Positions 1,571-6,285 of a stretch of 38,177 nt of DNA are shown piece by piece; position 1 is the stretch's first letter, and the number at the start of each line of letters is the position of its first letter. The position numbers and the translations under genes are program-made. The notes beneath the pieces are model-generated. The model did not search any database. It was given only the letters and a program-made list of their open reading frames with translations, and had not been told where the DNA came from. Source of the stretch: Deltaproteobacteria bacterium (GTDB taxonomy: Bacteria > Desulfobacterota > WTBG01 > CAIYCZ01 > CAIRTM01). Location of the stretch: positions 1-38,177 of the forward strand of contig JAJRXD010000041.1 in NCBI GenBank assembly GCA_024276465.1, given 5' to 3'.

Positions 1571-1598
1571 TTGACATCAATATATTATAAGTTAAAAT
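1571..1598 (+). promoter_or_regulatory. Sigma70-type promoter for the unknown protein/LonB operon
   Basis: TTGACA at 1571-1576 and TAAAAT at 1593-1598 are separated by 16 bases in a very AT-rich gap between uvrC and the next gene. The start codon at 1642 has GAGGAAA about 8 bases upstream. The -35 box is perfect and the -10 box is good. The operon start is inferred from position; no regulator site was recognised. Confidence 0.55.
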
Positions 1599-1641: not shown

Positions 1642-2838
1642 ATGACAGAGCCTGACTATGTTAAAAAGTTATTTCCGAGTGATATATGGGTGATCTCTGA
1701 GAGCAGATTCAGAAATTTGGATTTAAGCGGGATTTGCAGGGATTTTGGTGCTAAAATAGTTAAAGAACATGGAATTTCTGATTTAGCCTGGTATATGCTT
1801 AACCCGAATCCTATTACAGTAGAAAAAAAGATAATCGGATGTGAAATCCATTATAAGCAGCCATTGTCTGTTAAAATCAAAGAAAAAATCAGGAAAATTC
1901 TTCCGGAAAAACTGCAGAAACTTTATAAAATTAAAAATATCCTGCCTCCTGAAGTATTAATATCAAATAGTACAGCAAAGACATCCTGCATTCATGACAA
2001 GGACCTTAAGGAACATTTTGATAAGCTTTATGGATTATTAATGCCATATGATGCAATGCTGAAAAGACTTTCACGATTAGATTCAAAAACAATATCTGAT
2101 ATAAAAGGCATATGCAGGGGAACAGGCGATAACCGCCTGCTGTTAGAGATAAAAAGAGACAGTATTGCTGAAAAAATCAGGTATCTGTTTGATTATGCAT
2201 TGAAAAATATTCCTGTTATTCTTCCAAGGGCATTTGTGGCAGATGGTCTGCTTGATATGAAAGGATTTAACTTTGCTTCTTATGATCCCGCAAATTCATA
2301 CAGATTAATAATTTTTCAGCATAATGGAGCATCCAGAGCCTGTGTTCTGGGTCGCAATAATCAAGTTCAATACTGGATTGAAAATGTTCGACTTATTAAT
2401 TATATGTATCTGCTTGAGCAGACAATCAAAACAGACCCTTATTTTTATGATTCGCTGAATCAGTGCAGAAAAGGCAATGCTAAACCCCTGTTACTGTTTT
2501 TCAACAGACAGCTTGAAATCGATTATTCAAAGGGCCATCTTCCCGGTATATATAAAAAAGCGTTTAAGACCTGTAACGTAGGGCCGGATGAAAGAAGTGC
2601 TGTTGTTAACTTATTGAAAAATTCTCAGCTTGGGATTTCATTGAAGTATACGCACAAATCCGATTCCGGCGAGGAGAAGCTTTTAACCAGTATTTCTGTT
2701 ATGCATGACTTTAAAGCGCTTGAGCCCCTTAAAGAGCATCTTCCGCAGCTATACCTGGAAATTAACAGGAGGGCACCTGTATCTGAAGCAGGCAGGTTTT
2801 ATCTGCTGGATTCAATGAGAGGAATCATAGATGAATAA
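1642..2838 (+). CDS. Protein of unknown function, translationally coupled to a LonB-like protease
   Basis: This 398-residue protein matches no family I recognise. It starts with ATG behind a GAGGAAA ribosome site. There is no signal peptide and no obvious transmembrane segment. It is rich in Lys, Ile and Leu and looks like a soluble mixed alpha/beta protein. It has a basic segment around residues 70-105 (many Lys in KIKEKIRKILPEKLQKLYK), a middle part with Arg-rich helices, and a C-terminal part with hydrophobic strands such as KPLLLFFNRQLEIDY. No Walker, HUH, PIN, nuclease or metal-binding motif was seen. The stop codon overlaps the start of the downstream LonB-like gene by 8 bases, so the two are almost certainly co-translated. 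The inference is that it works with the protease, for example as adaptor, substrate or regulator; nothing in the sequence decides which. Confidence 0.8.
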   Translation: MTEPDYVKKLFPSDIWVISESRFRNLDLSGICRDFGAKIVKEHGISDLAWYMLNPNPITVEKKIIGCEIHYKQPLSVKIKEKIRKILPEKLQKLYKIKNILPPEVLISNSTAKTSCIHDKDLKEHFDKLYGLLMPYDAMLKRLSRLDSKTISDIKGICRGTGDNRLLLEIKRDSIAEKIRYLFDYALKNIPVILPRAFVADGLLDMKGFNFASYDPANSYRLIIFQHNGASRACVLGRNNQVQYWIENVRLINYMYLLEQTIKTDPYFYDSLNQCRKGNAKPLLLFFNRQLEIDYSKGHLPGIYKKAFKTCNVGPDERSAVVNLLKNSQLGISLKYTHKSDSGEEKLLTSISVMHDFKALEPLKEHLPQLYLEINRRAPVSEAGRFYLLDSMRGIIDE

Positions 2839-5116
2839 TGATTATAATGAAAATGATTATTGCTGGATAAAAGAGTTGATGCACTATCCGGAAACCCAGC
2901 ATGAGCGCCTCAATTTCTTTGAAGATACTTCAGAAATCTCATTGCCGGAAGACCCGATTGAAAGGGTCATATTTCAGGACAGGGCAAAGCGTGCCATAAG
3001 AAAGATTGCGCAAAACAGGGGGCATATACTCATGGTTGGAAGGCCCGGAACCGGAAAATCCATGCTTGCCAATATGTTTAAAGATATTCTCGACAGATCA
3101 TTAGGTGACTACATAAGACCTAAAGAGACAATTGTGGCATTCCCCGGCAAAGACAAGAACCATATACGAATTGCTTATGAAAAACCTGAAATATTAGACA
3201 AGCATATTTTGAAAGTAAACCAGCAGATAGAAGCAGCGAAAAACAGTTTGGAAAAGTTCAGTCTTTCTGATCAGATAAATTCCGTAAAAAAAGTAAAAAA
3301 AGTATTGCTCTGGGCAACAGGTATAAGCCTTGCTGCCGGTATTTTTTTTCCTCCGGCATTTATTGCTGCGGGCCTGACCGGCATTGGTTCAATATTCATG
3401 TTTATGCAGGAGAACAATCATAAAGTTCAGGAAAAAATACAGAGAGAAACCCGTGACGGTCTGAAAGTGGAAATCAAGCATCTGTCTGATATGCTCCCTG
3501 AGATTCTGTATGATCCAAGGAAAGACAGGGACATGATGTCATTCATATCTGAACCCAATTCAAGGAATATGAAGGGTGGATTCAGACATGACCCTTATCA
3601 ATCCGGCAATCTGCACACCCCGGCACATAAGAGAGCATTTTTAGGCGCCCATGCAAAATCACCTGTTATCTATGTTGATGAGTTAAAGACCCTGGTTAAA
3701 GCCGGCTATATGTCAAGTATGCTTGAAATAATGCAAAGCAGGAAATTTATTCTTGAGGGTGGTAAGAACGCTGGAAGTGGTTCAGCAGACAGATCAGAGA
3801 ATTGCCTGAAAGCTGACAATATAATTATTGCATGCTGTAATCACGATACCCTCGCATATCTTCAGGAAGAAGGGGACGGAGCTTTTCTGAGCAGAATAGA
3901 AGATAAGGGGGAAATAATCCAGATGGAGAGCGCTGTTCCTGAGACCCCGGAGAATACACTTCAGGTTGCACAGTACATTAAGCAGGAAATAGTCAATCTT
4001 GGGAAGGAATTTAAAGCTACCTGGGGCCAGGTAATAGCAAAAGAAGGCCATGAAGGCGTCAGAAGGAGAAGCGAGCATATTTTTGGCAGAACCCTGCCGG
4101 CAGATTATAAGCTGCAGGAAAGGGAGTTTTCCAGAAAAGCTGTTGCGGAGATAATTAAAGAGCTCAGATGCCGCTGCTCAGACAGGAAATTGAGCAGCCT
4201 GCTGAGGCCGATTAACGGTGTAATTAAAACAGCTGAGCTTGAGGCTATACTTGACAACTCTCCCCTGGTGGAGCCCCGGCATGTCAGGCGTGCACTGGAG
4301 GAGCATGTAAGCCTTGAAGGTGTTCTTGCCAGAGAAATAACAGAACACAAAAGAGACCTGAAAAGGTACATAAGCTCCATGACCGACTCAATTGGCTATG
4401 TTGTAGGCCTTGCAGTTATTACTTCAAAATCAAGCGGTCAGATGTTTGGCCAGCCTTTGCCTATTCACTGTCAGATTAACACCGGGGGTGCAGACACGGT
4501 TATTGCATCCGGCAAGACAGGAGACATTGCAAAGGCAGCAGCACAGAATGTAAGGGCATCGATAAAAAAAATATTAAAAACAGTAGGCGCTCCTTATGTA
4601 GGGTGTGAGATGCATGTGGAATATATCCAGGCACACGGTGGTGTGGAGGGTGACAGCGCATCGGTTGCCATGGATATTGCGTTGATATCTGATTATATTA
4701 AGCAGCCTGTAAATCAGAGATTCGGTGTAACAGGCTCACTGACCGGTGACATTATTCTTGCAGTCGGTGGCGTTACAGAAAAGATCAGGTCGATAATGGA
4801 CCCGGAACTGGCAATGGAGGGCGCATGTATCCCCTGGCAGAACAAGCACGATATTGAGCCTCTTCTGATAAATGCAGAGTTTGAATATGTACAGAAGGAT
4901 GAAGTTCCGGGAATAAGAATTTTCAGGGCTGAGGAGAAAAAGGACCCCTTTGACATATATTTCTGCAAGACAAAATATAATGCCTACAAAATTTTAATGG
5001 GGGTTGGAAGGCAGGAGGTTGAAGACAGGATGGTGGAGAGAAGCAGGAAGGATTTGAGATCTGTCCAGGAGATAAAAAATTCTTTTCAGCAGACAGCAGA
5101 AAGTCTGGTAAGATGA
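2831..5116 (+). CDS. LonB-type membrane-inserted ATP-dependent Ser-Lys protease
   Basis: This 761-residue protein is a Lon-family AAA+ protease of the archaeal LonB type. Walker A is GRPGTGKS at residues 70-77. About residues 153-193 form a hydrophobic hairpin (WATGISLAAGIFFPPAFIAAGL and following) inserted between Walker A and Walker B, the LonB hallmark that anchors the ring at the inner face of the membrane. Walker B is VIYVDE ending at D283-E284, followed by a sensor-1 region (IIIACCNHD). The C-terminal protease domain has GVEGDSASVAMDIALIS with catalytic Ser609 and GGVTEKI with Lys651; GDSAS is the LonB form rather than the DGPSAG of LonA. The large N-terminal domain of LonA is absent. 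In the family, LonB degrades misfolded and membrane proteins using ATP. The gene overlaps its upstream unknown partner by 8 bases. Subfamily assignment is confident; substrates are unknown. Confidence 0.93.
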   Translation: MNNDYNENDYCWIKELMHYPETQHERLNFFEDTSEISLPEDPIERVIFQDRAKRAIRKIAQNRGHILMVGRPGTGKSMLANMFKDILDRSLGDYIRPKETIVAFPGKDKNHIRIAYEKPEILDKHILKVNQQIEAAKNSLEKFSLSDQINSVKKVKKVLLWATGISLAAGIFFPPAFIAAGLTGIGSIFMFMQENNHKVQEKIQRETRDGLKVEIKHLSDMLPEILYDPRKDRDMMSFISEPNSRNMKGGFRHDPYQSGNLHTPAHKRAFLGAHAKSPVIYVDELKTLVKAGYMSSMLEIMQSRKFILEGGKNAGSGSADRSENCLKADNIIIACCNHDTLAYLQEEGDGAFLSRIEDKGEIIQMESAVPETPENTLQVAQYIKQEIVNLGKEFKATWGQVIAKEGHEGVRRRSEHIFGRTLPADYKLQEREFSRKAVAEIIKELRCRCSDRKLSSLLRPINGVIKTAELEAILDNSPLVEPRHVRRALEEHVSLEGVLAREITEHKRDLKRYISSMTDSIGYVVGLAVITSKSSGQMFGQPLPIHCQINTGGADTVIASGKTGDIAKAAAQNVRASIKKILKTVGAPYVGCEMHVEYIQAHGGVEGDSASVAMDIALISDYIKQPVNQRFGVTGSLTGDIILAVGGVTEKIRSIMDPELAMEGACIPWQNKHDIEPLLINAEFEYVQKDEVPGIRIFRAEEKKDPFDIYFCKTKYNAYKILMGVGRQEVEDRMVERSRKDLRSVQEIKNSFQQTAESLVR

Positions 5117-5180: not shown

Positions 5181-5462
5181 TCATATAATAATTATTAAAC
5201 AATCATTAGAACCTGCACCGAATGACTCTGTGAATCCTGATATAATATATCCACCATCAGAGGTTTGTTGGACAGAAGAAGCCCCATCATTTCCATCCCC
5301 GCCATAGGTTTTAGACCACTTTTGCGAGTTATTATTTCTAAAAGTCTTCCAATCTTTGGGGTCCTGAGCTTCTGAATATCCGTAAAAAACAAAGATTGTG
5401 GACAGGAACATTATCAATGAACTTATTAATACTACTGATTTGACACTATTTCTTGTTTTCAT
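5181..5462 (-). pseudogene. Truncated exported repeat protein (first SDGGY-type propeller repeat only)
   Basis: The 93-residue reading frame begins with a convincing Sec signal peptide (basic MKTRNSVKS, hydrophobic [18 protein letters not shown], cleavage near SEA). It then has [45 protein letters not shown], written here as the visible order of motifs: [35 protein letters not shown]. This is exactly one unit of the long-repeat propeller proteins in which units continue with KTDSNGN and then repeat many times. Here the frame stops after that first unit (NDCLIIII, stop), and no further repeats can be read downstream on this strand. The start codon is directly abutted by a palindromic repeat element with no ribosome site. 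I therefore read it as the remnant 5' end of a larger gene. A functional short secreted protein is less likely. Confidence 0.6.
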
Positions 5463-5618
5463 AACAGTGGCTGAACGGAAAGTCCTGATTCCGAGTTGTC
5501 ATTGCGAGCCCCGATAAAATCGGGGAAGCGATCTCTTTGTTTCCAGGAGATTGCTTCGGTCATGCTTCCCTCGCAATGACAGAAAAAGTGTAATTAATGG
5601 ACTTTTCGGTCAGGTACT
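5463..5618. repeat. Nested palindromic intergenic element, copy A
   Basis: The outer arms are AGTGGCTGAACGGAAAGTCC (5466-5485) and the inverted GGACTTTTCGGTCAGGTACT (5599-5618), matching at 16 of 20 positions as an inverted repeat. Between them lies a second, different palindrome. It runs from GTCATTGCGAGCCCCGAT (about 5498) through a small hairpin CCCCGATAAAATCGGGG to the inverse CCCTCGCAATGACA (ending near 5581). The two levels of symmetry are centred on the same point. The arms also occur in copies B and C, which carry other inner palindromes. This copy abuts the start codon of the truncated repeat-protein gene. Confidence 0.8.
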
Positions 5619-5622
5619 ACTT

Positions 5623-5680
5623 AGTGACCGAACGGAAAGTCCTCTTTTTGTCATTTTGACCAACAGGAGAAATCTTGTTA
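5623..5680. repeat. Half element of the nested palindromic family
   Basis: Four bases after copy A, a new left arm AGTGACCGAACGGAAAGTCC (5623-5642) starts. It continues into TTTTTGTCATTTTGACC and CAGGAGAAATC, the left half of the inner module seen in copy B. No right arm follows. It is a solo half element, either decayed or formed by an incomplete event. It lies in the gap between copy A and the VapC gene; the rest of 5680-5780 shows no coding potential. Confidence 0.6.
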
Positions 5681-5841: not shown

Positions 5842-6285
5842 TTATGGTGTCAGCACTTCTATTTCTTTATACTTTGCAAAATCATTCTGATTGTAAGTAT
5901 AAATGCGAGTAATATTGTTTAGAAGCATGGTAGCAGTTAGACTGAGATCAAAAATATCCTGTCGGGTTGTTTTGTGTTGTTTTAAAAGGACTATGGTTTT
6001 TTCAATTATCTCAGACCCTGGATATATCTTCAAAATATTTTTTGATTGAAGATATTTTTCCATCTCCGATAATGCTTCTTCTTGAGTTCTTGGGTTGCTT
6101 ACTCTTCTGGGATCAGTAATAGTGGCATAGAATTCATTTAACACTTGAGGACAAACGCACAGTGAAACATCACCCCTTACACCATTTTCTCTTAAGTCTG
6201 CGGAAGCCTGATAAAAAGTTGAATTTTTATCCGCAGCATAAACCAAAACATTGGTATCCAAAAGACTGGTTTCAGAGATAATCAT
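5842..6285 (-). CDS. PIN-domain ribonuclease toxin, VapC type
   Basis: This 147-residue protein has the PIN nuclease signature: LLDTNVLVYA with the first acidic residue D10, NEF with E51, a DIFDLSLTATML helix with D110/D113, and YTYNQNDF near the C-terminus with D135. In VapC toxins these acidic residues bind Mg2+ and cleave RNA, often tRNA, when free of antitoxin. Length is normal for the family. It overlaps the upstream antitoxin gene by 14 bases, the usual translational coupling of vapBC pairs, and ends at a clear intrinsic terminator. The locus is bracketed by repeat elements, a typical accessory setting. The RNA target cannot be read from sequence. Confidence 0.88.
   Translation of the reverse strand: MIISETSLLDTNVLVYAADKNSTFYQASADLRENGVRGDVSLCVCPQVLNEFYATITDPRRVSNPRTQEEALSEMEKYLQSKNILKIYPGSEIIEKTIVLLKQHKTTRQDIFDLSLTATMLLNNITRIYTYNQNDFAKYKEIEVLTP

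What the first reader, a model, noticed from the sequence alone, without database searches (positions are those of the whole stretch)
1642..5116. Archaeal-type LonB protease translationally coupled to an unknown 398-residue partner
The LonB-like protease has an intact Walker A/B, membrane hairpin and Ser609-Lys651 dyad. Its ATG lies inside the end of the unknown gene, and both follow a good promoter. A dedicated partner gene for a membrane LonB is not something I know as described. It could be an adaptor, inhibitor or substrate.
Basis: partly seen in the sequence, partly recalled or inferred. Interest (0 to 1): 0.6.

Follow-up and report, generated by a model that had tools for sequence, protein, structure and literature searches.

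The report
Membrane LonB protease with obligate partner
In several groups of uncultured anaerobic bacteria, an unusual archaeal-type membrane protease gene (LonB) always overlaps the gene of an uncharacterised protein, so the two almost certainly work as one machine, most likely with the partner choosing or regulating what the protease destroys.

Summary
A 398-aa ORF (U, 1642-2838) overlaps by 8 nt the start of an intact B-type Lon protease (2831-5116). The link survives when LonB is 50% and U only 19% identical. No other flanking gene is conserved. U is under purifying selection (dN/dS 0.10-0.26) and co-diverges with LonB (r 0.90). U matches no Pfam, NCBIfam, PHROG or PADLOC family and no solved fold significantly; one central stretch resembles the archaeal/eukaryotic insertion of ribosomal protein uL3 (probable, not proven). 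Canonical archaeal LonBs sampled here lack U, so this is a separate LonB subfamily with an obligate partner. Best reading: U is a dedicated subunit or adaptor of the membrane LonB. That step is inferred; inhibitor and substrate remain open. New variant of a known kind (dedicated Lon regulators such as SmiA and LarA are described for LonA).

The parts
1571..1598 (+). promoter-like TTGACA-16-TAAAAT, 11 of 12 matches, 43 nt before U's ATG
   Evidence: consensus match only
1642..2838 (+). U: 398-aa obligate partner, soluble by hydropathy and basic (pI 9.2), no known family
1822..2223 (+). U residues 61-194: stretch resembling the archaeal/eukaryotic insertion of ribosomal protein uL3
   Evidence: VIA Z 7.6, 97 aligned, rmsd 4.6 A; hhalign P 6e-6, score 50.6 vs at most 22.1 in 60 shuffles, limited to U residues about 141-194
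2230..2835 (+). U C-terminal half (197-398), folds confidently alone, no significant fold match
   Evidence: AF2 pLDDT 89.6; Foldseek no match, VIA best Z 5.4
2831..2838 (+). 8-nt overlap of U's end and LonB's start (translational coupling, inferred)
2831..5116 (+). LonB-type ATP-dependent protease, 761 aa
3038..3061 (+). Walker A GRPGTGKS (residues 70-77)
3299..3409 (+). hydrophobic, presumably membrane-anchoring hairpin (residues about 157-193), inserted in the AAA+ module
4655..4657 (+). catalytic Ser609 (GDS, B-type)
   Evidence: invariant in 50 relatives
4781..4783 (+). catalytic Lys651
   Evidence: invariant in 50 relatives
4901..5113 (+). conserved LonB C-terminal extension beyond the archaeal match (FDIYFCKTKYNAYKILMG...), a candidate docking site
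   Evidence: archaeal LonB 3k1j aligns to residue 681; conserved in the subfamily; docking is inference

Best explanation
U and this LonB form a two-gene operon for one membrane-bound proteolytic machine. Translation of LonB is coupled to the end of U, so both are made together. LonB sits on the inner membrane through its hairpin, with ATPase and protease parts in the cytoplasm. U is a soluble, basic protein that most likely binds the LonB ring and acts as its dedicated substrate-selecting or activating subunit (adaptor). Shown: the ORFs, intact motifs, overlap, obligate co-occurrence, co-divergence and purifying selection on U. Inferred: coupling, physical binding, membrane location, and the adaptor role.
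For: Every one of 59 LonB relatives with upstream sequence has U directly upstream, same strand; three loci are cut. Even samples of genomes: in the window's phylum 7 of 297 carry U, by single sequence and by profile, and the same 7 carry LonB; in the class of G333 28 of 150 carry U and 29 LonB, the extra one starting at LonB residue 215 at a contig end. Divergent pairs (L125: LonB 50%, U 19%; L147: LonB 48%) are still adjacent and overlapping. No third gene is conserved in the flanks. U is absent from plasmid and phage records. Distances of U and LonB correlate (r 0.90; 2,000 permutations reach at most 0.25) and U changes about 2.9 times faster. dN/dS of U 0.10-0.26, LonB 0.03-0.14. Dedicated regulators of LonA exist (SmiA, PMC9204741; LarA, PMC10665427).
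Against: No binding, expression or proteolysis data. Co-occurrence does not tell adaptor from inhibitor or substrate. No complex was predicted. Canonical archaeal LonB occurs without U, so LonB chemistry as such does not need it. The co-divergence partly reflects shared species history and physical linkage.
Confidence: 0.55

Rival explanations
1. U is a dedicated inhibitor or safety cap that keeps the membrane protease silent until a signal removes U, much like an antitoxin made before its toxin.
For: U is always encoded first, the order seen for many antitoxin and inhibitor genes (established knowledge); LonB of this clade is never seen without U.
Against: Single copy per genome, no presence on plasmids or phages, no defence-family match; canonical LonB needs no such cap.
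Confidence: 0.17
2. U is the dedicated substrate: LonB processes or degrades U to switch another activity of U on or off.
For: Obligate pairing; U evolves faster than LonB.
Against: A substrate with its own function would be expected sometimes without this LonB; none found in 447 genomes. U is predicted to fold stably (pLDDT 87.8).
Confidence: 0.12
3. U is an assembly or membrane-insertion chaperone of LonB, with no role in substrate choice.
For: Gene order U then LonB with overlapping frames favours co-translational assembly; only LonB of this subfamily has U.
Against: Canonical LonB assembles without U. Not otherwise tested.
Confidence: 0.13
4. The pair is only co-inherited neighbouring genes without functional link.
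For: Closely related genomes share synteny in any case.
Against: Flanks are otherwise not conserved; pairing holds across two bacterial phyla and one archaeal bin, down to 19% identity of U.
Confidence: 0.02

Closest known systems
Archaeal LonB (TIGR00764, MEROPS S16; Thermococcus onnurineus 3k1j, Haloferax volcanii HVO_0783)
   Same: AAA+ module with an inserted hydrophobic hairpin, B-type Ser-Lys dyad 42 residues apart with Asp before Ser, LonB LID similarity.
   Different: Scores 256.9 bits against a 516.6 cut-off; 761 rather than about 630 aa with a C-terminal extension; deep separate clade; always with U, whereas the canonical LonBs of the sampled archaeal phylum have none.
LonA adaptors and activators SmiA (Bacillus) and LarA (alphaproteobacteria)
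   Same: Dedicated protein that steers or activates a Lon protease (PMC9204741, PMC10665427).
   Different: They act on soluble LonA; U is 398 aa, has no family match, and is locked in an operon with a membrane-type LonB.
Ribosomal protein uL3, archaeal/eukaryotic type (PF00297)
   Same: Residues 61-194 of U's model align to the uL3 insertion (Z 7.6); profile match at the same place.
   Different: U is not called by PF00297; similarity in sequence is limited to about 50 columns and vanishes when residues 164-194 are masked.
Bacillus subtilis LonBA
   Same: Bacterial, presumably membrane-bound Lon (PMC9569914).
   Different: LonBA has its membrane insertion at the N terminus and an A-type active site (PMC9569914); here the insertion is inside the AAA+ module and the site is B-type.

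Membership tests
LonB subfamily of Lon (S16) | Ser-Lys dyad 42 residues apart, Asp before Ser | tested here: met
   D608-S609, K651; invariant S and K in 50 relatives; definition from PMC9569914
LonB subfamily of Lon (S16) | Membrane-anchoring insertion inside the AAA+ module between Walker A and B | tested here: met
   hydrophobic peak starting at 155-174 in all relatives, minimum mean 1.63; real membrane location not tested
LonB subfamily of Lon (S16) | Lon_C proteolytic domain | tested here: met
   PF05362 47.9 bits, cut-off 21.1
Canonical archaeal LonB (TIGR00764 equivalog) | Score above the curated cut-off | tested here: not met
   256.9 vs 516.6 bits; separate clade in the tree
uL3 ribosomal protein (PF00297) | Match to the family profile over most of its length | tested here: not met
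   no PF00297 hit for U or for its divergent members
uL3-like insertion domain (homology of one part of U) | Shared fold and sequence of the archaeal/eukaryotic insertion | tested here: inconclusive
   Z 7.6, under the 8 that would stand out; hhalign P 6e-6, still 1.5e-5 with the scan-selected sequence removed, but only 52 columns
Lon adaptor | Binds Lon and changes which substrates are degraded | not testable with these tools
   needs protein experiments
Anti-phage defence system (BREX BrxL and others) | Match to defence models, defence neighbourhood | tested here: not met
   BrxL only 13.2 bits over 96 residues of the protease domain; scattered single-member hits for U; no conserved neighbours

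The most novel reading that the evidence does not exclude
U descends in part from archaeal/eukaryotic-type ribosomal protein uL3 and was recruited as a ribosome- or rRNA-recognising adaptor that delivers ribosomal or nascent proteins to a membrane-bound LonB, a route of membrane-linked quality control not described before.
Probability: 0.1. Interest if true: 0.82.

Novelty: new variant of a known kind. Interest (0 to 1): 0.6.

Why it matters
As far as the papers searched here show, no dedicated partner of a LonB-type membrane protease has been described; the dedicated Lon regulators found act on LonA. An obligate partner in an overlapping operon gives a direct handle on how a membrane LonB picks substrates, and defines a LonB subfamily that existing models do not annotate. 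It is directly testable with two co-expressed proteins.

Tried and rejected
(1) Known family for U: Pfam, NCBIfam, PHROGs and PADLOC on 54 members gave only scattered hits in a few members near E 0.001-0.1; PDB profile search with A1 gave none, with the wider A2 only chance-level hits and no uL3 chain. (2) Known fold: Foldseek on whole U against PDB and BFVD, and on the C-terminal half against PDB, best E 0.1-0.6; VIA best Z 7.6 (uL3) and 5.4 (a protease propeptide, with NTF2-like rows below). A missing match is no evidence of a new fold. (3) Internal duplication of U: the halves do not align. (4) Longer operon or defence island: no third conserved gene. (5) Phage, plasmid or viral origin: no match. 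(6) The uL3 link was tested with reversed and column-shuffled controls (scores 15-22 vs 50.6), without the scan-selected sequence (47.9), and with three solved uL3 sequences alone, which gave the same register but no significance (20.7); therefore kept only as probable. (8) A complex model of U with LonB was not attempted, as only single proteins can be predicted.

Full report
What is there. The window carries, 134 nt after a uvrC gene (UvrC domains), a 398-aa ORF (U, 1642-2838) whose end overlaps by 8 nt the start of a 761-aa Lon-type protease (2831-5116). The protease has Walker A at 70-77, a hydrophobic hairpin at about 157-193 inside the AAA+ module, and S609/K651, 42 residues apart with Asp before Ser. 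These are the B-type features described in PMC9569914. By profile it is nearest to archaeal LonB (TIGR00764, E 4e-76) but far under that model's cut-off; the nearest solved structure by sequence is Thermococcus onnurineus LonB, 3k1j.

Co-occurrence. A scan of one genome per species for close LonB relatives gave 62 loci. In all 59 that hold sequence upstream of LonB, U lies directly before it on the same strand; the other three start inside LonB. Because that scan was seeded by LonB, I repeated the test on genomes drawn evenly. In the window's phylum (297 genomes; G132 there matches the locus titled uncultured Desulfobacterium, so Desulfobacterota, an inference) seven genomes have U, by single sequence and by profile, and exactly the same seven have a full-length LonB of this kind; all other hits are distant Lons, about 25-34% identical in the protease half. 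In the class of G333 (150 genomes; Thermodesulfovibrionia-like by the titles of members) 28 have U and 29 LonB. The extra one begins at LonB residue 215 at base 1 of its contig. No genome has U alone. The 14 genomes checked one by one carry one copy each. In two divergent pairs (L125, L147) LonB is about 50% identical and U about 19% (measured for L125), yet they still overlap by a few bases.

Nature of the link. Of 56 measured junctions 53 overlap, 39 by exactly 8 nt and 10 by 11 nt. No other gene recurs in the flanks beyond synteny of near relatives and common signalling domains. Distances in U and LonB correlate at r 0.90 (permuted maximum 0.25), and U changes about 2.9 times faster. U is under purifying selection, dN/dS 0.10-0.26 in the pairs where it could be computed; LonB 0.03-0.14. 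The correlation is partly due to common descent, so I take it as support for joint inheritance, not as proof of contact.

Relation to archaea. In 80 genomes of the phylum of a Nanoarchaeota bin (G308), 74 have canonical LonB above the model's cut-off. In 279 genomes of that phylum only G308 itself has U; the other weak hit lies in the gene of ribosomal protein uL3 (PF00297). G308 has the U-LonB pair, split over two contigs, and no canonical LonB hit. Its flanks look archaeal by eye (a Hel308-like helicase piece, a surface protein with a C-terminal anchor), but a single fragmented bin cannot prove this. In the tree the U-linked LonBs form one clade far from the canonical archaeal ones, with G308 inside the bacterial members. 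The distribution is patchy: none of the five sampled members of the window's family has the pair. Transfer between phyla is likely but not shown.

What U is. No curated family matches it. AlphaFold2 models it confidently (pLDDT 87.8, pTM 0.83; C-terminal half alone 89.6), without significant Foldseek matches. Two searches that were not aimed at it point to uL3. All top 50 VIA rows for whole U are archaeal or eukaryotic uL3, mostly over residues 61-194 (best Z 7.6; many ribosome entries repeat this chain, so the number of rows adds nothing). The U profile's only weak hit in the archaeal sample is uL3 (E 1e-4). hhalign of U against 31 archaeal uL3s gives P 6e-6 and score 50.6, against at most 22.1 in 60 column shuffles and 15-17 for reversed profiles. 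It holds without the sequence that drew attention (P 1.5e-5) but rests on about 52 columns and disappears if residues 164-194 are masked. I put the homology at about 0.6. U's basic charge (pI 9.2, family median 8.9) would fit but is weak evidence.

How it most likely works. U is encoded just before LonB, accompanies every LonB of this clade, and is conserved but fast-changing. The simplest account is a subunit that sets substrate choice or activity of a membrane-bound protease, as SmiA and LarA do for soluble LonA (PMC9204741, PMC10665427). A cap or inhibitor, an assembly factor and a dedicated substrate remain possible. The C-terminal extension of LonB, conserved in the clade and beyond the archaeal match, is a candidate docking site (inference).

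Verdict. Its role is open. A new variant of a known kind: a LonB subfamily with an obligate partner of unknown family in an overlapping two-gene operon.

Noticed in passing
L123 and L068 (genome G308, titled Nanoarchaeota): This archaeal bin carries the U-LonB pair, split over two contigs, and shows no canonical archaeal LonB, unlike 74 of 80 relatives; possible replacement, or an incomplete bin.
   Followed up: partly
L061 (Desulfobulbaceae bin MAG127): Its LonB falls inside the Nitrospirota clade with high support: lateral transfer or a misbinned contig.
   Followed up: no
window 5842-6285, minus strand: A PIN-domain protein (PF01850), a family with many toxin nucleases; no antitoxin gene was looked for.
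   Followed up: no
window 5461-5640: A short repeat-like element downstream of the pair, with GAACGGAAAGTCC near both ends and CATTGCGAG/CTCGCAATG inverted arms; looks by eye like a small non-coding mobile element.
   Followed up: no
L030 / L149 (G816): U is frameshifted in this Nitrospirota bin while LonB is intact; assembly error or a decaying U.
   Followed up: no
window 5181-5462, minus strand: A short ORF with a signal-peptide-like start and an '[15 protein letters not shown]' motif that ends early: perhaps a truncated secreted repeat protein.
   Followed up: no
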